Source: Mycoplasmopsis agassizii
GTDB lineage: Bacteria > Bacillota_I > Bacilli_A > Mycoplasmatales > Metamycoplasmataceae
DNA length: 64,000 nucleotides
Reading direction: 5' to 3'
NCBI RefSeq assembly: GCF_002272945.1
Contig: NZ_NQMN01000002.1
Location: 124,001-188,000 of the forward strand
Shown: positions 44,688 to 60,773 of the stretch, piece by piece
Layout of the letters: each line of letters opens with the position of its first letter
How positions within the stretch are numbered: position 1 is the stretch's first letter
Program-made: the position numbers and the translations under genes
Notes under the pieces: generated by a model
Told to the model about the DNA's origin: nothing
Seen by the model: only the letters and a program-made list of their open reading frames with translations
Databases searched by the model: none

Positions 44688-45428
44688 ATGAAAAAGAATG
44701 AAGAAAAAAATCCTAAGAAATTTACTCCAAAAAGATTTAATGAAACTATTAAAACTCGCAAAGTTGATTATGATCTTCGAGAAGGCGATGTCAAGGAAGA
44801 ATTTAGTTCTGATCGCAAGCAACTTCGTATTGTTTCTGAAGTATTTGGTGAATTTAGAGAACCTGAAGAAAAATTACCTATCGATATTGATGGAGGAGGA
44901 AAAACTGGTGGTGGAACAAAACCAGGTAATGGTGATGAACCTGAATGAAAAAAATATGCTGATTCAATCAAAACTGACTTAAGAGAAGAAATGGCTACCA
45001 ATAGTCAAACATTAAGAGAAGAGTTTGCCGAAGGTAACCAAAAATTAAAAGAGGAGTTGCGTGAAGAGTTCAATGCTGGTAACCAAAAATTAAAAGAAGA
45101 ACTGAGAGAAGAGTTTGCCGAAGGTAACAAGAAACTAAAAGAAGAACTGAGAGAAGAGTTTGCCGAAGGTAACAAGAAACTAAAAGAAGAACTGAGAGAA
45201 GAATTTAACGCAGGAAATCAAAAACTAAAAGAAGAACTTCGAGAAGAATTTAACGCATCAATAAATGCGCTTGACAAAAAAATGGATAAAAAATATGATG
45301 AACTTAATCAGAAAATAGACAAAAACTATAATGAACTTAATGAGAAAATTGATAAAAACTCTAAAGACCTAGCAGATGTTAAGAAAGCAGTTGACCAGAT
45401 TTTGGAGATTTTAAAGAACAAGAAATAA
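44688..45428 (+). CDS. Coiled-coil protein with tandem 15-residue repeats
   Basis: The 246-residue hydrophilic protein has three parts: a basic/acidic N-terminal region (residues 1-65), a Gly-rich linker (GGGKTGGGTKPGNGDEPEW), and a long coiled coil. Residues about 109-183 are five repeats of a 15-residue unit of the form LREEF(AE/NA)GN(Q/K)KLKEE. The rest (KKMDKKYDELNQKIDKNYNELNEKIDKN) continues with heptad spacing to the end. There is no signal peptide. It resembles the generic coiled-coil proteins of mycoplasmas with a DUF16-like C-terminus. A structural role is possible, but none is shown. TGA at 44946 is Trp. Confidence 0.75.
45012..45236 (+). repeat. Five tandem 45-bp repeats inside the coiled-coil gene
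   Basis: Five consecutive 45-bp units each encode LREEF..GN.KLKEE; a sixth begins at 45237 and diverges after eight codons. Units 3 and 4 are nearly identical in DNA (GAAGAACTGAGAGAAGAG blocks), which suggests recent slippage or unequal recombination. Length change would stay in frame. Confidence 0.85.
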
Positions 45429-45585: not shown

Positions 45586-47757
45586 CTAAAGATCTTGTGT
45601 TTGTGCATAAGGAATGTTTAATGTAAATGTTTCAGAAACTAAGCTTCCATAATGAACAACAAAATCTCATTCACCAGCAAGTCCACCATTTTTAAAAATT
45701 AGAGTTGCTCCGTTTGTAAGTTCTGATAGACCTTTAATGCCAGCAGGCTCATCTCCATAATTTAATAAATTTGTTACATAGGCTTGGTAGGCAACCATCT
45801 GTAAAAGGCCTTGATCATCTAAAGTATTTCTAGGATTAGATTTTAAATATAAAACAAAGTGTTTTATACGGTCTTCATATTGGTTTTTATCGTTTTTATC
45901 ATGATCGAGAGCGTGTTTAAAAACTTCAACAGCTTGATCTAAAACCTGTTTTTCAGTTAAAAATCCTGATAAGGTAATTTTTATAGGTTCTGATTTGACA
46001 TTACCTTTTTTGAAGATCAATTCTAAAGTTACTGAGCCTTCTTTATTTAAAAAGTCAATAGTTTTTACTTCAGCATTGACACCTTTATCCTGATTAGTTC
46101 AACTTATTTTTTGCCCTTCAGGTAACTTGTCATTTAGTTTTTCGATGGTGTCAATATCTTGTAAACTAGCAACTCATTTAGCATCAACTTTTTCATCTTT
46201 TTGAGGTTCTCTGACTTGATAATCAAATTTATTAAACTCGTTATAAGCAAATAAAACTAAATTATGATCATCAGATAATTTATCGTTAAAACCTTCTAAA
46301 ACTAATTCTTCTGTGCCAATAACTAAATTGCCAATACTGTATGTACCTAGAAGGTAGATTTTTTGGTTTTTATAATCAATTCCACCTTTGGTAGGATTAA
46401 CTTCTAGTTTTAACTTAACATTGTTTGCAGTTGCTACTTTGTCATCAAAGATTTTTTGCACAGTCTCAATATATTTATTAGCAGTTTCTTTATTAGTGAA
46501 GGCAGGTTTAGTGATTTTGTCTTGTTCATTTCATTTTTTTAATGACTCATAATAAGTATCAAAAGCGATGCCAACAAGTTCTCTTCTGCTTAAAAAGTTG
46601 CTGATAGTTACTAATTTTTCTTCAGATCTAGCTTCACCTTTTACGAAAGTAATTGAGATAATAACTTCACCCTTGATGTCATCAGCACTAATAACTTTTA
46701 CTTCGCCAGTTACACCTTCTTCTAGTTTAATTTTATTTTTTTCTAATAGTCTTGCTTGTAAATACTTATAAGCATCGTGATCAAAATATTGACTTTGCTC
46801 AAATTTTTGATTATCCAAAATAGTTGGTTTAAAAGCACTTGCTCTTAGGTGTGAATTAGAATTTACTTTTGCTCATTTTTCATGATCTATTCTAAATTCA
46901 TTGCTGTGGCTTTTACGTGTACCATTTCAATCATGTATCATTCCTTCGGGAAAATATATGTCACCTCGATCTAAGGTTGCTTTTGTTAAAATAAAATTAT
47001 TTACAGTTGCTTCAACAGCTTTTTCATTTCTGTCTAAATACTTTGTTTTAAAGCCTCTTACCTTGATAGTTTTTTCTCGTATTTGACCTAATTTTTCAAG
47101 TTTAACTTCAAAAACTGAAATACCTTTTGCAGTATCACTTTGTGTTCTTGTTATTGTTACATTGATATCTTTATCAAATGAAATAGGTTCACCAACTGTA
47201 TTATTATTTCAAGATTCTAGTGAATTAATATCGCTTTTAGCAGGTAGTAATTGCTTATTAGAAGAATCTTTTTTTAGTTTTCTATCAGTAAATTTTTCTA
47301 TTTCAGTACTTAAAAATCTTGCCACTCTTTCTCAGTCTTTGAGCGCAAAATTAACAATATTTAAATACCCTTCTCTAGTTGCAACAACGCCATTTTCTTC
47401 ATAAGAAAATGACAGTTTTAAATTGATAACATATTCACTTGCGTTAGCAACTTCCATCTTTGTTATCTTTATACCACCCAGTAAATAACCTAAATAATCA
47501 CCATCAGAAATTAAATTCAATAATTTGTTTTTGTAATCACTTGCGATTGATTCAAATTGAGATTTGACAACATCAACTTCATCTTTTACATTAGCAGTTC
47601 AACTTTTGTTAGTTAGTTCATTAACTATTTGTTTCAATTTTTCTTCTGCTTGATCTTGTTTGATTGATTGATCAATAGGTGCACAAGCAATTGCTGCAGT
47701 TGCAGTAACTACTGATGCAAGTGATAAACTAGTTACAATTAGAAATTTTTTTCTCAT
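45586..47757 (-). CDS. Array lipoprotein A
   Basis: The 723-residue protein starts MRKKFLIVTSLSLASVV and has the lipobox AAIAC (Cys near residue 25). It is built from about five similar beta units, each with an alternating charged strand pair that ends in a phrase such as VTISNF, VLEGFN or ITLSGF, the pattern of the lipoprotein-associated domain. The C-terminal part (DDQGLLQMVAYQAYVTNLLNYGDEPAGIKGLSELTNGATLIFKNGG as separate blocks) is shared with B, C and D. It is closest to B and C. No lipase or protease motif is seen; surface adhesion or antigenic roles are inferred. The leader carries the SD-hairpin-ATG element. Confidence 0.85.
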
Positions 47758-47800
47758 CTTAATATCAGCTAAATTTGTAAAGCAAATTTAGCAACTCCTT
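47758..47800 (-). promoter_or_regulatory. SD-hairpin-ATG leader element, lipoprotein A
   Basis: On the minus strand AAGGAG (47795-47800) is followed by a perfect 10-bp stem, GCTAAATTTG/CAAATTTAGC with loop CTTTA (47768-47792), then ATG at 47757. The distance from SD to ATG is 37 nt along the chain but about 12 nt if the hairpin is folded out. TATAAT lies further upstream, near 47819. Confidence 0.75.
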
Positions 47801-47886
47801 ATTTTATATAAATATATTATAATCTTTTATAACGTTATAACCCTTATTTATGTCCAAAACTGTATTTTTTACGATAACTTCTAGAA

Positions 47887-47912
47887 AAGTGCTATAACAA
47901 AATTTATTTTTG
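47887..47912 (-). promoter_or_regulatory. Conserved upstream block of lipoproteins A, B and C (copy at A)
   Basis: Minus-strand AATAAATTTTG-NN-ATAGCACTTTT recurs about 90-130 nt upstream of the SD of genes A, B (50370-50394) and C (52832-52857). It sits before the -10 region and may be an upstream promoter or regulator site. Confidence 0.45.
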
Positions 47913-47949
47913 ATAGAGATTAAATCTATAGAAAAATCAAGATCACAAA

Positions 47950-47983
47950 AATAGCAATTTTCCAATTTTTGAAAATTGCTATT
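47950..47983 (-). terminator. Terminator of lipoprotein B
   Basis: AATAGCAATTTTC pairs with GAAAATTGCTATT around 8 nt, with a T5 tract on the minus strand. Confidence 0.7.
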
Positions 47984-48046
47984 TGTTTTTTTTAAAATTG
48001 CATCTAATATTACAATTAAATCTTGGCTATTTTTATTTCTTAAAAA

Positions 48047-50245
48047 CTAAATATTTTGCGTTTTAGGATGTGGAATATTTAGTTTGAAAACTTCAGAAAT
48101 TAAACCACCATAATGAACAGTGAATTCTCATTCACCTGAAAGTCCACCATCTTTAAAGACTATAGTTGCACCATTTGCAAGCTTACTTAAACCTTTAATA
48201 GAAGCAGGCCCATCTCCATAATTTAATAAATTGCTAACATATGATTGGTAAGCAACCATCTGTAAAAGACCTTGATCATCTAGAGTATCTCTAGCATTGG
48301 ATTTTAAATATAGAACAAAATTTTTCATGCGTTCTTCATATTTATTTTCACCATTTTTATCTTTATCCAGAGCATGTTTAAAGACTTCTACAGCATTATC
48401 TAAAACTTGTTTTTCAGTTAAAAATCCTGATAAATTAATTTTTATAGGTTCTGATTTGATGTCACCTTTTTTAAAGAATAACTCTAAAGTTAATGAGCCA
48501 TCTTTGTTTGAAAAGTCAATAATTTTGACTTCAACTTCAACACCTTTATCCTGATTAGTTCAACTTATTTTTTGATCTTCAGGTAGTTTGTCGTTTAGTT
48601 TTTCAATGGTATCAATATCTTGTAAACTAGCAACTCATTTAGCATCAACTTTTTCAGTTTCTTTAGGTTCTCTAACTTGATAATTAAATTTATTAAAGTC
48701 GTTATAAGCCGTTAAAACTAAATTGCTCTCTTCAGATGGTTTATCGTTGAAACCTTCTAGAACAACTTCTGTTGTTTCTAAAACTAAATCTCCAATGCTA
48801 TATGTACCTAAAAGATAGATTTTTTGATTTTTATAATCAATTCCACCTTTAGTTAAATCGACTTCAAGTTTTAATTTGACATCATTTGCATATGTTGTTT
48901 TATCATCGAAAATTTTTTGTAAAGTTTCGATATATTTATTAGCCGCTTGCTTGTTTGTAAAAGCAGGTTTAGTGATTTTGTCTTGCTCATTTCATTTTTT
49001 TAATGAAGTATTATAAACTTCAGAAGCAATATCAATAAGTTCTCATTTTTCTAAAAAGTTATCGATAGTTAATTGATGTTCTTCGGATCTGGCTTCACCT
49101 TTTACAAAAGTAATTGAAACAATTACTTCTCCGTTTATGTCATCTGCTTTAACAACTTTTACTTCTCCAGTTACTCCTTCTTCAAGTTTAATTTCGGCTT
49201 TTTCTTTTATTCTTGCTTGTAAATACTTATAAGTTTCTTTTTCAAAATATTGACTTTCTTCAAATTTTTTATTATCTAAAATAGATGGTTTAAAAGCGCC
49301 TGCACGTAGGTGAGAGTTCGAACTTACTAATGCTCACTTTTCAGGATCTCTAGTAAAATCATCGATGCCACTTTTAACTGGCGGATTGGGTTGATCATAA
49401 TAGCCATCATCAATTCAACGGCTTCTTCTTGGAAAATATATATTCCCTCGATCCAAAGTCGCTTTTTCTAAGGTGAAGTTATTTACTGTTGTTTCAATAG
49501 CTTTTTCATCAGCATTTAAAACTTTTATTTTAAAGCCATTGACCTTAATAATTTTTTCTTTTTTCAGATAAGACTTTTCAAGTGTAATTCTGAAAAATGC
49601 AGATCCTTCTGTTGTATCGCTTGTGGTTTTTGTTACTGTTACGGTTATATCTTTTCTAATTGAAACTGCTTCGCCAACTGTATTATTGTTTCAAGATTCT
49701 AGGGAATTAATATCACTTTTAGGAGATAGTAATTGCTTATTAGAAGAATCTGCTTTTAATTCTCTATCAGTAAATTTCTTTAATTCAGAAATTAAAAATC
49801 TTTCAAGAATTTCGTTATCTTTAAGTTCAAAATATCATATGTGAATATTTACATCGTTAGCCGCAGTAACACCATTTTCTGTATAAGAAAGCGATAACTT
49901 TAAACTAATATCATCTTCTCTTCAATTAGTAACCTTAACATTAGTTATTTCTGCTTGATCTAGTAAATCTGTAAAGCGTTTTATTTCAGTCTTAGATATT
50001 AAATTCAGTAATTTATTTTTGTAATCGCTTGTGATTGCTTCAAATTTAGCTTTAACAATTTCTAGATCATCTCTATCTCTAACAGAAAAACCCTTGTTAC
50101 TTAAATCCATAACTATTTTTTTCAATTTATTTTCTGCAATATCTTGTCTTATTGGTTGGTCTATAGGTTCACAAGCAATTGCTGCAACTGCAGTGATTGC
50201 TGTACCTACTGATAAACTAGTTACAATTAAAAATTTTTTTCTCAT
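48047..50245 (-). CDS. Array lipoprotein B
   Basis: The 732-residue protein starts MRKKFLIVTSLSVGTAITAV with lipobox AAIAC (then EPIDQP). Its frame has no internal TAA or TAG; several TGA codons are Trp. The five-unit beta architecture matches A. The last unit and C-terminal block (DDQGLLQMVAYQSYVSNLLNYGD, then ASIKGLSKLANGATIVF) are almost identical to C and close to A, while the N-terminal third is more divergent. The mature N-terminus begins with an Ala/Leu/Lys helix. Surface role inferred. Confidence 0.85.
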
Positions 50246-50288
50246 CTGAATTTTAGTTAAATTTGAAATTCAAATTTAGCTTCTCCTT
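50246..50288 (-). promoter_or_regulatory. SD-hairpin-ATG leader element, lipoprotein B
   Basis: AAGGAG (50283-50288) is followed by GCTAAATTTG/CAAATTTAAC with loop AATTT (50256-50280; one mismatch) and then ATG at 50245. The gap is 37 nt. A TTGACT with TATAAT promoter follows upstream, near 50298-50324. Confidence 0.75.
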
Positions 50289-50425
50289 TTTCTTAGCACA
50301 TTATAGACTTTTATAAAATTAGTCAAACTATTTGTGTAATAAAGTCGAATTTTTACAAGAACTTTTTGCAAAAGTGCTATGGCAAAATTTATTCCTTTAA
50401 AAAAGATTTCAACCTACTTATTAAT

Positions 50426-50455
50426 GAGAATTAAAAATAGCAATTTTTGAAAATT
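50426..50455 (-). terminator. Terminator of lipoprotein C
   Basis: An inverted repeat around ATAGCAATTTT with AAAATTACTAT is followed by T5 on the minus strand. Confidence 0.6.
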
Positions 50456-50485
50456 ACTATCTTAATATTTATTAGTTTCATCTTT

Positions 50486-52708
50486 TTAAAACGAAATATT
50501 TTGGGTTTTTTCATAAGGAATTTTTAGTGTAAAAACATCAGAAACTAATCCACCATAATGAACAGTGAATTCTCATTCACCTGTAAGCCCGCCATTTTTA
50601 AGGACTAAAATTGCACCATTTACAAGTTTACTTATTCCTTTAATAGAAGCAGGCCCATCTCCATAATTTAATAAATTGCTAACATATGATTGGTAAGCAA
50701 CCATTTGTAAAAGCCCTTTATCATCTAGAGTATCTCTAGCATTAGATTTTAAATATAGAACGAAATTTTTCATGCGTTCTTCATATTTATTTTTACCATT
50801 TTCATCTTTAACCAGTGCATGTTTAAAGACTTCTACAGCGTTATCTAAAACTTGCTTTTCAGTTAAAAATCCTGATAAAGTAATTTTCACGGGTTCTGAT
50901 TTAATATTATCTTTTTTGAAAATTAACTCTAGAGTTAATGAACCATCCTTGTTTGAAAAGTCAATAGTTTTTACTTCAACTGCAACACCTTTATCTTGAT
51001 TAGTTCAACTTATTTTTTGACCTTCAGGTAGTTTGTCATTTAGTTTTTCAATAGTATCAATTTGTTGCGAACTAGCAACTCATTTGCTTTCCACTTTTTC
51101 ATTTTCTTTAGGTTCTCTAACTTGATAATTGAATTTATTAAAATCGTTATAAGCCATTAAAACTAAATTATTGTCTTCAGATAAGTTGTCGTTGAAACCT
51201 TCTAAAACAATTTCTGTTGTGTCTAAAACTAAATCACCAATGCTATATGTACCTAAAAGATAGATTTTTTGATTTTTATAATCAATGCCGCCTTTAGTTG
51301 AATCCACTTCTAGTTTTAACCTAACCTCATTTACATATGTTATTTTATTATCAAAAATTTTTTGCATAGTTTTGATATATTCATTAGCAGTTTGTTTGTT
51401 AGTAAAGGCTGGTTTAGTGATTTTGTCTTGCTCATTTCATTTTTTTAATGAAGTTTTATAAACTTTATAAGCAACGCTAATAAGTTCTCATTTTGCTAAA
51501 AACTGAGTAATAGTTAGTTGAATTTCTCCAGATCTTGCTTCACCTTTTACAAAAGTAATTGAAACAATTACTTCTCCTTTTATGTCATCTGCTTTAATAA
51601 CTTTTACTTCTCCAGTTACACCTTCTTCAAGTTTAATTTCATTTTTTTCCTCTAGTCTTGCTTGTAAATATTTTGCAGTTTCTTTTTCTAAATATTGGAT
51701 TTTTTTGAATTTTTTATTATCTAAGATGGTTGGTTTGAAAGCACCTGCCCGTGAGTGTGAATTAGATCTAGCTAATGCAAATTTTTTAGAATCTATAATA
51801 AGTGTTCTTGGTTCATTGGGATCATAATCATCAATAACATCCTGAAGTCTACCATTTATTCATTGATTATATGTGTTCTCCCAATCCAATGTCGCTTTTC
51901 TTAAAGTGAAGTTATTTACGGTTTTTTCAACTGCTTTTTCATCATCAGTTAAAACTTTTGTTTTAAAGCCACCGACCTTAACTATTTTCTCTTGTTTTTG
52001 ATAAAAGCTCTCAAGTATAACTTTGAAAAAAGCCTCCCCTTCGGCTGCGTTGGTTTTGGTTTTTATTATAGTTACGGTTATATCTTCTCTGATTGAAACG
52101 GGTTCACCAACTGTATTGCTATTTCATGATTCTAATGAATTAATGTCACTTTTAAAGGCTAGCAGTTTCTTATTAGAAGAATCTGTTTTTAGTTCTCTAT
52201 CAGCAAATTTATTTAATTCAGAAATTAAAAATTTTGTAAGAATTTCATATTGTTCAGGTGCAAAATTTCATATCTTAATCTCAGCTTCATTATTTGAAGT
52301 AAAACCGTTTTCCGTATAAGCAAGTGATAATTTTAAATTGATAATAGTTTCTTCTGATCCGATAACCTTAACATTAGTTATTTGTGCTTTATCTAGTAAC
52401 TCTGTTAAACTTTCTGCATCAGTGTCAGAAAGTAAATCTAATAATTTATTTTTGTAATCACTTGTGATTGCCTTAAATTTAGCCATGACAGATTCAAGAT
52501 CATCTCTTTTTTTAGCAGAAAAAAAACCTTTGGTATTTAAATTCTCAACTACTTTTTTCAACTTATTTTCTGCTGTATCTATCTTAATAGGTTGCTGCTC
52601 TATAGGTTTGTTAATGGGTTGGTCGATAGGCTCACAAGCAATTGCTGCAACTGCAGTAATTGCTACTCCTACTGATAAACTAGTTACAAGTAAAAATTTA
52701 TTTCTCAT
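50486..52708 (-). CDS. Array lipoprotein C
   Basis: The 740-residue protein starts MRNKFLLVTSLSVGVAITAV, lipobox AAIAC, followed by an expanded Pro/Gln-rich stretch (EPIDQPINKPIEQQPIK) not seen in B. ATG 52708 is chosen over an upstream in-frame ATG at 52744, which would lie before the leader hairpin. Five beta units follow. A Glu/Asp-rich insert around 51800-51850 differs from B. The frame was followed through with no TAA or TAG. Surface lipoprotein of unknown ligand. Confidence 0.85.
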
Positions 52709-52750
52709 ATGAATTTTGCTAAATTTGAAGAGCAAATTTAGCACCTCCTT
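52709..52750 (-). promoter_or_regulatory. SD-hairpin-ATG leader element, lipoprotein C
   Basis: A strong AAGGAGGT (52743-52750) is followed by a perfect stem GCTAAATTTG/CAAATTTAGC with loop CTCTT (52718-52742), then ATG at 52708. TTGACT and TATAAT upstream match those of B. Confidence 0.8.
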
Positions 52751-52885
52751 TTTTGATAAGCGAATTATAAACTTTTATAAAATTAGTCAAACTATTTATG
52801 AAATAAACCTGAATTTTTACAAGAATTTTTTGCAAAAGTGCTATGCCAAAATTTATGAATTTTATGCTTAAACACTAAGATTAAA

Positions 52886-52915
52886 AAATAGCAATTTTCA
52901 AAAAATTGCTATCTT
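52886..52915 (-). terminator. Terminator of lipoprotein D
   Basis: An ATAGCAATTTT/AAAATTGCTAT inverted repeat is followed by T6 on the minus strand. Confidence 0.65.
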
Positions 52916-52943
52916 AATATTTATTAGTTTTAATTTTCAGAAA

Positions 52944-55142
52944 CTAAATTTCTTGAGTTTTAGCATAAGGAATTTTTAGTGTAAAAATCTCTGAAACTAG
53001 TCCACCATAATGAACAGTGAATTCTCAATCACCTGCAAGTCCACCATCAACAAAGACTAATATAGCACCATTTACTTGTTTTTCTAAACCATCGATGCGA
53101 GCAGGTCCATCGCCAGAATTAAGAAGTTTTGTAACATATGCTTGGTAAGCAACCATCTGCATAGTACCTAAATTATCTAGTGTTTGTCTAGGATTTAGTT
53201 TCAAATATAGAACATAGTTTTTCATTCTATTTTCATATTTGTTATTACCGTGTGCATCTTTTTCCATTACCTTTTTAAAGATTGCTACTGCGTGATCTAG
53301 AACTTGTTTATCAGTTAAAAATCCTGATAAAGTAATTTTTACAGGTTCTGACTTAGCACTACCTTTTTTGAAAATTAATTGTAAAGCAACTGAACCATCT
53401 TTGTTTACAAAGTCAACAGTTTTGACTTCAACCGTAACACCTTTATCCTGATTAGTTCAAGTCACTTTTTGATTTTCAAATAGTTTTTCATTTAGTTGAT
53501 CAATAGTAGTAATTGTTTGTGAACTAGCAACTCATTTACCATCAACTTTTTCATTTGGCTTAGGATCTCTAACTTTATAATCAAGTTTTGTAAAGCTATC
53601 ATAAGCTTCTTTAACTAGTTTTGAATCTTGAGATAAGTTGGCATTAAAGTTTTGTAAAACAACATCATTATCACCTAGAATTACATTATTCACAGTATAT
53701 GTACCTAAAAGATTGATTTTTAGATCTTTATAGTCAATTCCACCTTTATTTGCATCGATTAGCAACTGAACTTTGACATTGTTAACATAGGCTCTTTTTT
53801 GGTCTAATACTTCTTGCATTTGTTCAATATATTTATTAGCCTCAACTTGATTACTAAAGCCTGGTTCATTAGTTTTATCTAGTAGATTTCATTCATTAAC
53901 TAATGAACCATAAATTGCTTCAGCGAAAGTACCTAGTTCTTTTTGGTCTAAGAAATTCTTAATAGTTAATAACTTTTCTTCTGATTTAGCACTGCCCTTA
54001 ACAAAAGAAATTGCTACAACTACTTCACCTTTAATATCATCAGAACTAATTACTCTAACCTCTCCAGTGACACCTTCTTCGAGCTTAATTTGATCTTTTT
54101 CTTTTAATTTAGCTTGTAAATGATCTGCTGTTTCTTTTTTAAAGTAGTCTGCTCTAGCAAATGTTTTAGTATCTAAAACAGTTGGCTTATAAGCACTTGC
54201 TCTTGAGTTTGAATTAGACATTGATAAAAGCCAATCAGGGTTTTTATCAAAGTCGTACTTAAGAATAGGTTTTGAACTATTTGTTCCCGTTGGATGTTTA
54301 ATTCCTGGTTGTTCTACGATAAATGATTCAACTGTTAGTTTTTCTGCTCCACGATCAAAATTGGCAACTTTTAAATTAAAGTTGTTATAAGTTTGTTCAA
54401 CAGCTTTTTCATCACTGTCAGGTGTTTTAATTTTGAAACCACTTACTTTAATATCTTTAGTTTTAGTTTCATTTTCTTTTGAAAGTGTTACTTTCAAAAC
54501 GATACTTCCTTTTTCTGTATCACTTGAAACTTTAGTTAAACTTACAGCAACTGATGCATCGATTTCAACTGCTTCACCTACGGTATTAGTGTTATAAGTT
54601 GCTAGTGAATTAATATCTGAATTTGATGCTAATAATAATTTATTAGATGAATTATCTTTTAAATTTCTATCTGTAAATTTAGCAATTTCATCCTCTAATA
54701 ATTTCTGAATTGCTTCGCTATTTTTAGCACCTAAACCAATAATTTTAATAGTAGTTTTATTAGTTGCTGATACGCCATCTTCTGTGTAAACTAGACCTAG
54801 ATCAAGACCGATTGATTTAGTATTTAATGTTGTTACTTTGATACTTGTTATTTGTGCATCACCTAAAAACTGACTAAATTGTTCAGTATTTTTTACTAAA
54901 CTTAATAAGTTGGTTTTATACTCTCCTGTAAATGCTTCAATTTTAGATTTAACTGCAGTATCAGTTTCTTTTTCTTTGATTGATAATTCAAAGTTGAGTA
55001 AATTAGTTGCAATTTTTTGCAAGGTAATTTCCACAGTTTCTTTAGCTGGTGGCTTATCAATTGGTGAACAAGCAATTGCTGCAGTTACAGCAATTACTGA
55101 ACCAAGTGATAAACCAGTTGTGATTAAAAATTTTCTCTTCAT
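52944..55142 (-). CDS. Array lipoprotein D
   Basis: The 732-residue protein starts MKRKFLITTGLSLGSVIAV, lipobox AAIAC (then SPIDKPPAKETVE). D, E and F share the KETVE/KDTVE opening and a long helical region (IKEKETDTAVKSKIEAFTGEYKT), forming a subgroup distinct from A-C. The central unit WLLSMSNSNSRASAYKPTVLD is nearly identical in E and F. The last third resembles A-C instead, so D looks like a hybrid of the two subgroups. ATG 55142 is used; an upstream ATG at 55169 precedes the hairpin. Confidence 0.85.
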
Positions 55143-55186
55143 TATTTTAAGACTAAAGTTACAAAGCAAATTTAGCCTTACCTCTC
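55143..55186 (-). promoter_or_regulatory. SD-hairpin-ATG leader element, lipoprotein D
   Basis: GAGAGG (55181-55186) is followed by GGCTAAA/TTTAGTC with an inner 3-bp extension across one mismatch (55151-55177), then ATG at 55142. The gap is 38 nt. This is the weakest stem of the six. Confidence 0.6.
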
Positions 55187-55604
55187 TTTTGGTTATTTAT
55201 AAGTTTATAGTTATTTTTGATTTGTTAAAGTTTACTTATAAACTTAAAAAAGTAGATTCATAAAAACACTTTTTTCTTTCACTAAAATAACTACGTGCCA
55301 ATTTTAAAACTTTGTCAAAATAGTCTGAAGATATTTTAAAACTTGGTTTATTTTGGAACTTTTAATTTCTTTGGGATTAAAATTTATTTAACCAAATTAT
55401 TAACTTGGTTTATTAGTTGATAATAAAGAACTTTAAATGCTAAAAACCATGTTTATGGGGCTTTTTGGCTTAATATAACATTTAAAAACGTGTTAATAAA
55501 TACGTTTACAAATGCTTTAAATGTTTAATCAAAGTAATTAAATTTACTACTTATATTTTTTTACTAACTTATTTTCCTAATTAGACCTAAATGAAAGAAA
55601 AAAA
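55187..55604. other. AT-rich upstream region of lipoprotein D
   Basis: No ORF is seen. On the minus strand TTGACAAAGTTTTAAAAT (near 55305) resembles a promoter -35 region, and a related sequence lies at the same place before F. The terminator of E is at the right side of this gap. Confidence 0.4.
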
Positions 55605-55627
55605 ACAGAAAGTTTTTGACTTTCTGT
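55605..55627 (-). terminator. Terminator of lipoprotein E
   Basis: ACAGAAAG pairs with CTTTCTGT around TTTTTGA, with T6 or more on the minus strand. Confidence 0.75.
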
Positions 55628-55635
55628 CCTCAATT

Positions 55636-57855
55636 TTAAACAACATTAACTGGTTGAATAATTGCACCTTTAAATTGAGGTTTTGGAAGTTTAATACTAA
55701 TTTCTTCAGATTCTAAACCGTTGTACATGACAACAAATTTAGCATTACCATTAAAATCTAAATGTTTAATTCTGACTAATGCAGTATTTCCTAATCATGA
55801 TAAGCCCGGTATACCATCTGAAGGTGAACCAAAATTAATTAAGTTAGCAAAATAACTTCCAAAAATATTCAACTGTGTTTGAATATTTCTTTGATTTTCA
55901 CTAGTTTGAGGTAGTGCTATATAAACAACAAATTCTTGAATCTTTTTATCAATAACTTTTACACCATCTTGATCTTTAGTTTCAAGCATTGCTTTAAAAG
56001 CATTTTTAGCAATATCAAAAACTTGTGCATCTATAAAAAAGCCTTTCAGTGTAACAGTAATAGGTTCTGAAATAATGTTGCCTTTTTTGAAATTAAACTG
56101 TAATGTAACTGATCCATTAACTCCGTTAAAACCAATAGTTTTAACATCTAAAATAACACCTTTATTTTTATTAGGTCATGTCATAATTTTATGATCTTGA
56201 CTTAATTTTTCATTCAGTTCTTCTAGCGAATTAAAGTGTTGTCTACTAGGAATTCATAGTCCTCCTCTTGCTTCATTAACTGTATCACTAACAACAGGAT
56301 TTCTCGCTTGTAATTCCTTAATATTAAAATTATTAGATGCTTCTAAAACTAGTTTTGCATCACCACTTAAACTATCATTAAAGCCTTGTAAAACAATTTT
56401 ATTAGTTGCTAAAACTACATTATTTAAAATGTAAGTACCTATTAAATTAATTTCTAATTTATCATAATCAATGCCACCATTTGCAGTATCAACTGCTAAC
56501 ATTAGACTTACATCATTAGGATAAAACTTTTGATCATCAAAAGTTTTTTGCATTAATTCAATATATTTTAAAGCTGTTGCTTCATCGCTAAAACCGGGTT
56601 TTAAATTTTTATCTTGGCGATTTCACGTATCAACTAATTTACCGTAAATAGCGTATGCAAAAGAACCTAATTCTTTTTGATCTAAGAAATTTTTAATGGT
56701 TAAAAATTTCTCATCTGATTTAGCATCACCTTTAATAAAAGTAAGAGCAACAACTACTTCTCCTTTAATGTCATCTGCAGTTACTATTCTCACTTTTGCA
56801 CTTACACCTTGTTCTAGTTTAATTTGATCTTTTTCCTTTAATCTAGCTTGTAAATGGTTTTTGATGTCGTTACTAAAATAATCTGCTTTAGGAAATGTTT
56901 TAGAATCTAAAACAGTTGGCTTGAAAGCACTTGCTCTTGAATTTGAATTAGACATTGATAAAAGTCAATCAGGGTTTTTCTCAAATCGATATTCATAAAT
57001 AGTACCTGAGTCATTTCCTGTGTCTATCTCAACAAATGATTCAACTGTTAGTTTTTCTGCTCCACGATCAAAATTCGCAACTTTTAAAGTAAAGTTGTTG
57101 AAAGTTGTTTCAACATCTTTTTCATCAGCATTAAGTAACTTAGTTTTAAAACCACTTACTTTAATATCTTTAGATGAAGTTTCGCTTTGCTTTGTAAGTG
57201 TAACTTTAAAAATAGTTACTCCTTTTGTTGTATCACTTGAAACTTTAGTAAAAGTTACAGTAATAGAATTATCAACTGCAACAACTTCTCCACTTGTATT
57301 AATATTTCAAGTTTCTAAATTATTAATTGTTGTTTTAGATGGCAATAATTCTTTTTCTTTTGAAGTATCTTTTAAATCACGATCTGTAAATTTAGCAATT
57401 ATAGTTGCTAGTTCTTCTTGAATTAAAGTACTTACTCTAGTTCCTAAACCAACAATTTTAATTGTTGTTTTATTAGTAGAGGTTTCACCTTCTTCAGTAT
57501 ATGAAAGTCCTAATTCAAGACTTAATGAAGTAGGACTTTGATCACTTACTTTAAGGCTAGTAATTTTTGCTTCACCTAAAAATTCACTGAATAATTTACC
57601 TTTTGTAGCTAGTTCAACTAACTTAGTTTCAAAGTCACTAGTGATTGCTTCAACTTTAGTTTTGATTACACTCGGTAAATCTTTGTCTTTAATTGTTAGT
57701 TCAAAGTTTTTTAAACTAGTTGCAATTTTAGCTAAAGTAAGTTCAACTGTATCTTTAATTAACGGCTTATCAATTGGTGAACATGCTATTGCTGCAGTTA
57801 CAGCAATAGCAGAACCTAATGACAACACTGTTGTTATTAGAAATTTTCTTTTCAT
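55636..57855 (-). CDS. Array lipoprotein E
   Basis: The 739-residue protein starts MKRKFLITTVLSLGSAIAV, lipobox AAIAC. It belongs with D and F by its N-terminal helix (ELTIKDKDLPSVIKTKVEAITSDFETKL as separate blocks) and the SNSNSRASAFKPTVLDSK unit. Its C-terminus diverges from the others (ending IIQPVNVV rather than TQDL/TQNI), so the last segment has changed independently. Frame continuous with TGA as Trp. Function unknown. Confidence 0.85.
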
Positions 57856-57897
57856 TATCTAAATTTAAATTTGTCTAGCAAATTTAAATTCCCTCTC
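57856..57897 (-). promoter_or_regulatory. SD-hairpin-ATG leader element, lipoprotein E
   Basis: GAGAGGG (57891-57897) is followed by a perfect 12-bp stem, AATTTAAATTTG/CAAATTTAAATT with loop CTAGA (57862-57890), and then ATG at 57855. The stem sequence differs from A-C on both strands but still pairs. Confidence 0.8.
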
Positions 57898-58265
57898 TTT
57901 TGTTGTTTATAAATTTCTCTGGTTACCCTTAGTTTCTAAAATAAATAGTTTAGAAACTAAATTTAAAAGTAGTTTAAATTAAACTCCTTTAACTCTCTCT
58001 TATATAGTAAAGTAACAGGATATGATTTTAGACTTTTGTCAAAAAAGACGGGTGCTAAAAATGTTTTTCACTTTTTTTGCATAAACCAGTCTTTTTTGGG
58101 TTAAAATTATTAAGGAATAAGATTTTCTCCTTTTAATTTTATTCTTAGTATATATAGTGTATCTAAAGTGGGTCGTGAAAGCGGCCTTTTTTCATTAACT
58201 TTTTAATAGTTAAATAAGGTGAATAAATATAAAAAAAGCATAATTAAGCAAAAGAATATAAAAAA
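57898..58265. other. AT-rich upstream region of lipoprotein E
   Basis: No ORF is seen. On the minus strand TTGACAAAAGTCTAAAAT near 58040 looks like a -35 region, with TATATAAG closer to the gene. The rest holds no feature I can support. Confidence 0.4.
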
Positions 58266-58288
58266 ACAGAAAGACAAAATCTTTCTGT
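58266..58288 (-). terminator. Terminator of lipoprotein F
   Basis: ACAGAAAGA pairs with TCTTTCTGT around TTTTG, with T6 on the minus strand. Confidence 0.75.
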
Positions 58289-58306
58289 TTGATGTTGGTT
58301 AATCTA

Positions 58307-60472
58307 CTATCTAGTTGTTGAACCAGGAGGTAGTTTAAATTGTGGTTGTGGAATTGTTAATTGGAATGGTTCAGATTGTAGTCCCCCATATTGAACAACA
58401 TATTTAAATGGACCTGCAACACCACCATCAAGAAGTACTAATATAGCAGAGTTTGCAAGTTGTCATAATCCAGGCAACCCTATTGAGGCATCTCCGTAAT
58501 TTAATAAATTAGTAACATAAGATTGATATGCCATGATTTGAATTGTTGACTCTGGTGATAATTGAGTGGTTTCACCTGGTTTAAGATAAACTATGTATTT
58601 TTTCATTTGTTCTTCAAGTGGATTTTTACCATCAGAACCCTTTGTAGTAATTGCTTTTTTGTATAATTCAGTAGCCCCTCTAAGAATATGTTGGTCTGTA
58701 AAAAATCCAGATAAAGTAATTTTTAATGCATCAGATTTTATTTCACCTTTTTTGAAAATTAATTCAAGTTCAACGGTTCCATTGCTATTATTAAATCCTG
58801 CAGTTTCAACTTCAACTTCAACGCCTTGTTCCTTATTCAGTCAAGTTATCTGATCTGTTGATGGTAACTTTTGATTCAATTTTTCAATTGAATTAATTCC
58901 TTGAGTGCTAGGAATTCATTTAGCACCTGTAAATTCACCTTGCTCTTGACTAGGCACACGAGTTCTATACTCAGTTTTTGTGAAACCATTATAAGCTTCT
59001 AAAACTAATCTAGCATCAGCACTTAAGCCATCATTGAAATTCATTAAAGTAATATCATTTTTTGCTAGAACTACATTATTTAAGGTGTATGTTCCTAATA
59101 AATGAATTTGTAGATTTTTATAATCAATACCACCTTTACTATTATCGATTGTTAAAGTTAATTTAACATCGTTAGGATATGTTCATGTATCATCAAAAGT
59201 TTTTTGCATTAACTCAATATATCTTTGAGCTCCTGCTTCAGTAGCAAATGCAGGTTTTAAATGTTTATTTTCTGGTTTATTTCATTTATCAACTAAATAA
59301 CCATAAATTGCTCCAGCAAATGTACCCAATTCTTTTTGGTCTAAGAAATTCTTAATAGTTAAGAATTTCTCTCCTGATTTAGCATTACCTTTTTCAAAAC
59401 TAATAGCAACTACTACTTCACCTTTGATATCATTTGAGGTTACGATTCTAACTTTTCCAGTTACACCTTCTTCTAGTTTAATTTGGTCTCTTTCAACTAA
59501 TTTTGCTTGTAAGTGGTTAGCTGTTTCTGCTTTAAAATAGTCTGCAGTAGTAAATTTTTTGCTATCTAAAACAGTTGGTTTATAAGCACTTGCTCTTGAA
59601 TATGAATTAGACATTGATAATAATCAGTCACGATTATTATCAAAATCAAACTTACCTGTTTTTTCAATACGTTGAGATCCACGATCAAAAGTAGCCTCTT
59701 TTAAAGTAAAGGCATTGAAGGTTTTTTCAACTGCTTTTTCATCATCACTAAGTGTTTGTGGTTTAAAGCCACTAACTTTAATATCTTTAGTTATTGTTTG
59801 ACTTTCTTTAGATAATGTTACTCTGTAAGTAGCAGTTCCATTACCTGAATCACTTGAAATTTTATTAAAACTTACAGTGATTGAACTATCAACTGTAACT
59901 GCTGTTCCAGTTGTATTACTATTTCATGTTTCGAGTGAATTAATATTCGACTGTGTTGCAAATAATTTTTTATCTGCTGAATCTGCTTTTAGATCACGAT
60001 CTGCAAATTTAGCCACTGCATCTGCAAGTTCTTGTCTAATTATTTCTGTTGTACTTGTTCCTAAACCAACAATTTTAATTGTTGCTTTATTAGTTGCACT
60101 TACTCCTGATTCAGTATATTTAAGTGATAATTCAAGACTTAATGAAGTAGAACTTGTATTTGTCACCTTTCAACTTGTAATTTCTGCTGAACCTAGATGT
60201 TGATTGAATTTAGTTGCATCAGTTACTAATGCTACTAATTTATTTTTGTAGTCACTAGTAATTGCTTCTAATTTTGCTTTAACTGCAGTATCTGTATCTT
60301 TTTCTTTGATTGTTAACTCTAAACTATTTAATGCATCAGCAATTTTTTTCAAAGTTGTTTCTACAGTATCTTTAGCAGGTGGGTTTTGATCTGGAGCACA
60401 AGCAATTGCAGTTGCTGCAACAGCAACTGATGCTACTGATAAAGTAGATGTGAATATGATTTTTTTTCGCAT
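58307..60472 (-). CDS. Array lipoprotein F
   Basis: The 721-residue protein starts MRKKIIFTSTLSVASVAVAA, lipobox TAIAC (then APDQNPPAKDTVE). It groups with D and E by the KDTVETTLKKIAD helix and WLLSMSNSYSRASAYKPTVLD. It lacks part of the third unit seen in D (shorter between 59640 and 59700). The C-terminus ends PPGSTTR. First gene of the array in transcription order relative to nusA, which is divergent. Surface lipoprotein; ligand unknown. Confidence 0.85.
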
Positions 60473-60514
60473 GTTTAGATGGTAAATTTATATTGAAAAA
60501 ATTTACCTTTCCTC
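60473..60514 (-). promoter_or_regulatory. SD-hairpin-ATG leader element, lipoprotein F
   Basis: GAGGAA (60509-60514) is followed by a perfect 9-bp stem, GGTAAATTT/AAATTTACC (60481-60507), then ATG at 60472. The G-C pairs at the base replace the GC/GC pairs of A-C on both strands. Gap about 36 nt. Confidence 0.75.
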
Positions 60515-60773
60515 TTTTCTGTTGTAATATATAAACTTATATATAGTTAGTTGAAATGCCTAGATGTGAATCTAGGATAATTAGTAAGTTCAAAAAAAAT
60601 ACTTCCACTCTCTCTCAAATAACTATGCAATAATTTTAAAACTTTGCATAAATAGGTTAAAGATATTTAAAAAACTAGATTTTTTTGCAGTTTTTTATTA
60701 GTTTTGCATTAAAATGAATTTATACAAATTATTAAAATTGTTTTAACAGTGATAATAATTGTATTCGAGCGAG
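60515..60773. other. Divergent intergenic region between lipoprotein F and nusA
   Basis: No ORF. A sequence on the minus strand (AAAGTTTTAAAATTATTGCATAGTTA region near 60620-60650) matches the corresponding region upstream of D and is probably the promoter zone of F. Confidence 0.4.

What the first reader, a model, noticed from the sequence alone, without database searches (positions are those of the whole stretch)
47758..60514. Six lipoprotein genes share a hairpin inserted between the Shine-Dalgarno sequence and the start codon
Seen directly: genes A-F each have a purine-rich SD, then an inverted repeat of 25-29 nt, then about 10 nt, then ATG. The linear SD-to-ATG gap is 35-38 nt in all six, too long for normal initiation, but falls to about 10-12 nt if the hairpin is extruded. 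The stems differ in sequence but keep pairing: GCTAAATTTG/CAAATTTAGC (A, C), AATTTAAATTTG/CAAATTTAAATT (E), GGTAAATTT/AAATTTACC (F). Inference: the stem brings the SD into register and may act as a switch (temperature, protein or helicase dependent) that sets lipoprotein expression as a group. The lipoprotein at 1273 uses an ordinary SD and lacks it, so the element is specific to the array.
Basis: partly seen in the sequence, partly recalled or inferred. Interest (0 to 1): 0.8.

Follow-up and report, generated by a model that had tools for sequence, protein, structure and literature searches.

The report
Hairpin-bridged ribosome binding sites, lipoprotein genes
In a tortoise mycoplasma, a small class of surface-protein genes carries an RNA hairpin between the ribosome docking sequence and the start codon, which probably folds out the excess distance; the same trick is documented for two genes of phage T4, but I found no report of it as a recurrent feature of a bacterium's own genes.

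Summary
All six tandem Lipoprotein_17-type genes (minus strand, 45.6-60.5 kb) have a promoter-like -10, a Shine-Dalgarno (SD), a 9-12 bp hairpin and then ATG, with no SD at normal distance. The stems beat dinucleotide shuffles (at most 8/2000 each), and paralogues and orthologues (Mycoplasmopsis agassizii 723) keep pairing through changes on both sides. The element is not specific to the array. In 858 kb of the genome a strict scan returned 9 starts: the six, two lipoprotein genes of an unrelated array, and one false start. A looser scan added two more lipoproteins, one with an A-U to G-C double change in its orthologue. Bridging the stem cuts the SD-ATG gap from 36-38 to 7-12 nt, close to normal for this genome. 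Best explanation: a split ("accommodated") ribosome binding site, as shown experimentally for T4 genes 25 and 38. Nothing supports a switch; calculated stems stay folded above 42 C. Site-specific recombination is unlikely: no tyrosine recombinase was found and every gene has its own -10. The main unexcluded rival is an SD-plus-hairpin 5' mRNA stabiliser with SD-independent initiation. No expression data were available, so the mechanism is inferred.

The parts
45586..47757 (-). gene A, lipoprotein with Lipoprotein_17 domains, 723 aa (code 4)
47768..47792 (-). hairpin A, GCTAAATTTG-CTTTA-CAAATTTAGC, 10 bp
47795..47800 (-). SD A, AAGGAG, 37 nt before ATG (12 with the stem folded out)
47816..47821 (-). 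-10-like TATAAT of gene A
   Evidence: motif only
48047..50245 (-). gene B, lipoprotein, 732 aa
50255..50281 (-). hairpin B, one C-A mismatch
50283..50288 (-). SD B, AAGGAG
50300..50305 (-). -10-like TATAAT of gene B
   Evidence: motif only
50486..52708 (-). gene C, lipoprotein (ATG at 52708)
52717..52743 (-). hairpin C, 11 bp perfect
52745..52750 (-). SD C, AAGGAG within a 10-nt match (AAAGGAGGTG) to the 16S tail
52764..52769 (-). -10-like TATAAT of gene C
   Evidence: motif only
52944..55142 (-). gene D, lipoprotein, 732 aa from ATG
55149..55179 (-). hairpin D, 12 bp with one T-C mismatch and two G-U; the orthologue has G-C and A-U at the two G-U pairs
55181..55186 (-). SD D, GAGAGG(T)
55196..55201 (-). 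-10-like TATAAA of gene D
   Evidence: motif only
55636..57855 (-). gene E, lipoprotein, 739 aa
57862..57890 (-). hairpin E, AATTTAAATTTG-CTAGA-CAAATTTAAATT, 12 bp
57892..57897 (-). SD E, GAGAGG
57906..57911 (-). -10-like TATAAA of gene E
   Evidence: motif only
58307..60472 (-). gene F, lipoprotein, 721 aa
60481..60507 (-). hairpin F, GGTAAATTT...AAATTTACC, 9 bp
60511..60516 (-). SD F, AAGAGG
60526..60531 (-). -10-like TATATT of gene F
   Evidence: motif only

Best explanation
Each leader is a split (accommodated) ribosome binding site. Transcription probably starts a few nucleotides before the SD. The SD pairs with the 16S tail. The hairpin between SD and ATG folds locally and takes 25-31 nt out of the path, so the ATG lies 7-12 nt past the SD, in reach of the P site. 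Shown here: the anatomy, the conserved pairing, the missing proximal SD and the recurrence in unrelated surface-protein genes. Inferred: the transcript start, the folding in the cell and the need of the fold for translation. Most likely this is constitutive wiring that keeps these genes translatable, not a switch; why surface-protein genes use it is open.
For: Stems exceed shuffles. Both-side changes keep the pairs among paralogues. In eight orthologous leader pairs with the M. agassizii 723 genome, arms changed at 6/136 positions against 22/139 unpaired ones (Fisher p 0.002); 5 of the 6 arm changes keep a pair, including one A-U to G-C double change. The usual aligned SD distance to ATG in this genome is 2-6 nt, rarely over 10. 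None of the 8 strict split leaders has an SD at normal distance, against 44 of 69 other lipoproteins (p 0.0007), so the SD was displaced, not added. Strict scan: 8 of 77 lipoproteins against 1 of 538 other ORFs, and that one is a false start. Spacer length differs by 1 nt between orthologues (D 38/37, E 36/37) and in-frame stops lie between SD and ATG in A, B, E, F, D2, E2 and F2, so no conserved upstream start exists. The 16S tail is intact in G002, CACCTCCTTTCT. The same mechanism is experimentally documented for T4 genes 25 (27 to 11 nt) and 38 (22 to 5 nt) (PMC3014915).
Against: No transcript, probing or translation data. About 58% of non-lipoprotein ORFs in this genome have no recognisable SD near their first ATGs, so SD-independent initiation is possible. 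Weak SD-side extensions in B, C and F could partly mask the SD. The 16S gene was not found in the window's own assembly. Paralogue relatedness inflates covariation counts; independent both-side changes number about five. Background predicts about 1.3 strict hits in 807 starts, so the second array rests on its orthologue as well as on the scan.
Confidence: 0.66

Rival explanations
1. 5' mRNA stabiliser: the SD-like sequence near the 5' end holds a 30S subunit and the hairpin blocks 5'-to-3' exonuclease, while translation starts at ATG without an SD (stab-SD plus stem).
For: The predicted transcript starts only a few nt before the SD. Strong SDs and blocked 5' ends stabilise mRNA in bacteria without RNase E, e.g. 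cryIIIA and hbs (PMC3997798). SD-less ORFs are common here.
Against: It does not explain why a proximal SD is missing in all these genes while most other lipoproteins have one, nor why the stem-to-ATG distance is held at 5-10 nt. It can act together with bridging.
Confidence: 0.17
2. Operator: the inverted repeat is a DNA or RNA site for a regulatory protein that controls these genes.
For: A, B and C share a near-identical palindrome GCTAAATTTG-N5-CAAATTTAGC. A short AAATTT core is common to nearly all array stems.
Against: Outer stem letters differ between paralogues with pairing kept, and the stems of the other families (TTATAGA/TCTATAA, ATTTAGATATT/AATATCTAAAT) share no core with these; the common feature is position between SD and ATG.
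Confidence: 0.1
3. Site-specific recombination sites in the leaders, as in the vpma/vsp/vsa phase-variable arrays.
For: Same setting: tandem mycoplasma lipoproteins with repeated leaders; vpma recombination sites lie at -1 to -72 before the start codons (PMC2268961).
Against: No tyrosine recombinase domain (PF00589) in the assembly, while 14 of 14 control genomes have it. Each array gene has its own -10 motif, whereas vpma has one promoter. Sites are not identical between genes.
Confidence: 0.03
4. Chance inverted repeats in A+T-rich leaders carried along by gene duplication.
For: The window is 28% G+C and six copies share ancestry.
Against: Shuffles, slid-partner control, compensatory changes, slower change in arms than elsewhere, recurrence in unrelated lipoproteins.
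Confidence: 0.03

Closest known systems
Bacteriophage T4 gene 25 and gene 38 split (accommodated) ribosome binding sites
   Same: SD and AUG too far apart in line; an RNA hairpin between them shortens the distance (27 to 11 and 22 to 5 nt); stem conserved in related phages; stem mutations lower initiation (PMC3014915).
   Different: Phage genes with translation shown by experiment. Here: chromosomal lipoprotein genes of a mollicute, a recurrent class of at least ten genes in several families, longer spacers (up to 40 nt), no experiment. No sequence relationship claimed.
stab-SD / 5' stem mRNA stabilisers of Bacillus (cryIIIA, hbs, ermC)
   Same: SD-like sequence close to the 5' end of the mRNA, in a related bacterial lineage.
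   Different: In stab-SD the stabilising SD need not serve the start codon; here no second SD exists.
vpma/vsp/vsa phase-variable lipoprotein arrays of mycoplasmas
   Same: Tandem surface lipoproteins with repeated leader elements.
   Different: One promoter and a neighbouring tyrosine recombinase there (vpma); here a -10 motif per gene, no recombinase found, divergent stems.

Membership tests
Split / accommodated RBS (T4 gene 25 type) | SD complementary to 16S tail, too far from AUG in linear sequence | tested here: met
   36-38 nt against a usual aligned spacing of 2-6 nt; 16S tail read from the sister genome
Split / accommodated RBS (T4 gene 25 type) | Hairpin lying wholly between SD and AUG that reduces spacing to a workable value | tested here: met
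   7-12 nt left in the array; folding beats shuffles
Split / accommodated RBS (T4 gene 25 type) | Pairing conserved in relatives | tested here: met
Split / accommodated RBS (T4 gene 25 type) | Stem needed for efficient translation | not testable with these tools
   needs reporters, probing and ribosome profiling
stab-SD 5' stabiliser | SD-like sequence near the mRNA 5' end | tested here: inconclusive
   -10 motif 8-15 nt before the SD in all six, start not mapped
stab-SD 5' stabiliser | mRNA half-life depends on the SD-like sequence independently of translation | not testable with these tools
   no expression data
vpma/vsp/vsa-type recombination array | Tyrosine recombinase encoded, usually next to the array | tested here: not met
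   PF00589 not found in the 96% complete assembly
vpma/vsp/vsa-type recombination array | Single promoter, other copies promoterless | tested here: not met
   a -10 motif before each of the six SDs
RNA thermometer | Stem melts within the physiological temperature range | tested here: not met
   predicted MFE at 42 C still -4.8 to -11.9 kcal/mol; prediction only

The most novel reading that the evidence does not exclude
A bacterial chromosome uses hairpin-bridged ribosome binding sites as a regular, repeatedly evolved device for a set of surface-protein genes, possibly giving these genes initiation properties (for example dependence on an RNA helicase, an initiation factor or 30S standby binding) that other genes lack.
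Probability: 0.4. Interest if true: 0.7.

Novelty: new variant of a known kind. Interest (0 to 1): 0.52.

Why it matters
If true, this is a natural set of genes in which initiation depends on RNA folding between SD and start codon, so the bridging idea known from two phage genes could be tested on unrelated stems in a cell's own genome. It also warns annotators: start finders that look for an SD at 5-10 nt treat these genes as SD-less or may move the start. It bears on how mycoplasmas, which have few transcription factors, set surface lipoprotein levels.

Tried and rejected
Upstream start codons: TTG at 55169 in D and GTG at 52744 in C are in frame, but the D orthologue is out of frame with stops between. 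Thermosensor: rejected on predicted stability. Recombination site: rejected. Rfam: no leader match; only a tRNA and SRP RNA in the window. Wider distribution: a covariance model over 28 genomes gave strong hits only in the window genome's array and the sister genome's array; the weaker hits read in other genera (E 0.006 and worse) are not before lipoprotein starts. The protein family itself was found in full length only in the window genome and M. agassizii 723. A strict scan of 400 kb of two other congeners gave one weak non-lipoprotein hit. Transketolase hit rejected: an in-frame ATG lies just after the SD. The gene at L053:5911 (-) has a possible stem but was not followed. The general promoter scan was uninformative (66 found, 77 expected by shuffling). 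Papers: no report of this arrangement in mycoplasmas found in the searched library.

Full report
Setting. The window is contig C2:124001-188000 of a 1.27 Mb Mycoplasmopsis assembly. Six tandem genes on the minus strand encode about 720-740 aa lipoproteins, 43-69% identical to gene A; the five scanned carry Lipoprotein_17 domains (PF04200). TGA is read as Trp.

Observation. Every leader reads -10 motif, 8-15 nt, SD, 1-3 nt, hairpin of 25-31 nt, 6-10 nt, ATG. Predicted leader folds are -6.2 to -11.9 kcal/mol at 37 C. The spacer alone folds better than nearly all dinucleotide shuffles, 0-8 of 2000 reaching it. B and D have one internal mismatch each.

Conservation. On nine leaders (six here and orthologues of D, E and F in G002) 86% of cells pair at the right register and 22-57% when the partner is slid. 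Three outer pairs show changes on both sides (AU/GC/UA, GC/UA/AU, CG/UA/GC). Control (a) of that tool does not correct for relatedness, so I count about five independent double changes. Between orthologues D/D2 the two changed arm positions turn G-U into G-C and A-U; E and F arms are unchanged while loops and tails vary. In G002 a fourth leader survives in front of a remnant from which nearly the whole reading frame of copy B was deleted; its stem also has one mismatch.

Not confined to the array. A strict scan (SD, stem of at least 9 bp with at most one mismatch, 3-14 nt, ATG) of 858 kb with 622 ORFs and 807 candidate starts returned nine hits: the six, two of three genes in a second lipoprotein array with no Pfam match at E 1 (G000:C1:140465 and 141613; locus L043), and a transketolase false start. 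With perfect stems of at least 6 bp, nine hits were returned, all lipoproteins, adding G000:C2:60895 and 65484 (locus L139) and missing D for its mismatch. Those two are distant relatives of each other (35%) with 7-bp stems, AAATAGA/TCTATTT and TTATAGA/TCTATAA; the G002 orthologue of the first has AGTAGA/TCTACT, an A-U to G-C change on both sides. The third L043 gene (142760) has a mismatched stem. A pair of secreted proteins (C1:374776 and 377502) has GTGCA(T)/(A)TGCAC between a distant SD and ATG, conserved in G002, but the fold leaves about 20 nt unless weak outer pairs form; I treat it as doubtful. In 400 kb of two further congeners the scans gave one hit each, neither with a lipoprotein signal. 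All-ATG background is 0.16% without the eight, so about 1.3 strict hits are expected in 807 starts; eight of 77 lipoproteins against one of 538 other ORFs is far from that, though the six are paralogues and not independent.

How it works. Where an SD is recognisable in this genome its aligned distance to ATG is mostly 2-6 nt and hardly ever above 10. In the array it is 29-35 by the same measure (about 37 for F if its GAGG core is used), and 7-12 nt from SD core to ATG when the stem is taken out. No strict split leader has a proximal SD, whereas 44 of 69 other lipoproteins do. The SD was therefore displaced rather than duplicated, and the hairpin fills the displacement. The simplest reading is that the 30S subunit binds the SD and the folded stem lets the ATG reach the P site. 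This is the mechanism shown for T4 genes 25 and 38, where stem mutations lower initiation and, for gene 25, chemical probing supported the fold (PMC3014915). Shown here: anatomy, conservation, recurrence. Inferred: transcript start, folding in the cell, requirement for translation.

Alternatives. A 5' stabiliser is compatible with the inferred 5' end and may act as well (PMC3997798). An operator is possible for A-C but does not fit the different stems of other genes. Recombination as in vpma (PMC2268961) lacks a recombinase and a single promoter. A thermosensor is unlikely, since stems are predicted to hold at 42 C and above. Upstream start codons are not conserved in frame.

Limits. The window's assembly lacks a recognisable 16S gene, so the anti-SD was read from G002. 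About a third of the genome was not scanned. Lipoproteins were called by a simple lipobox rule. Species identity of the window genome was not settled; only its closeness to M. agassizii was.

Noticed in passing
L043:1565-1612 and 2712-2759 (G000:C1:141565-141612, 142712-142759): In two leaders of the second lipoprotein array the stem contains a tiny reading frame, ATG TTT TTT AAA AAC ATT/ACC TAA, at normal distance from the SD; it could be a leader peptide instead of, or as well as, a bridge.
   Followed up: partly
L054 (G002:C35:60083-60243): In M. agassizii 723 copy B of the array is deleted from about the start codon to the last ~37 codons, leaving leader and gene tail joined; copies A and C were not found there.
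   Followed up: partly
L038:2472(-), L050:17019(-), L130:12948(-), L134:10812(-): A dispersed family of four ORFs (217-260 aa) shares the leader AAAGGAGATATTCTTTAGTTATAATTAAATTATT-ATG: SD about 25 nt from ATG with the SD itself inside a short repeat AAAG...CTTT. A different, unexplained arrangement.
   Followed up: no
window 45015-45251: Coiled-coil protein with 5.3 tandem 45-nt repeats (KLKEELREEFAEGNQ-like) next to the array, on the opposite strand.
   Followed up: no
whole G000 assembly: No tyrosine recombinase domain (PF00589) was found although the assembly is 96% complete; XerC/XerD-type proteins appear absent.
   Followed up: partly
L107:3717(+), L117, L122 and other loci: A large family of about 340-380 aa lipoproteins (21 matches in G000, 27 in G002) is scattered and arrayed through both genomes; only the L043 subgroup was seen to use the hairpin leader.
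   Followed up: partly
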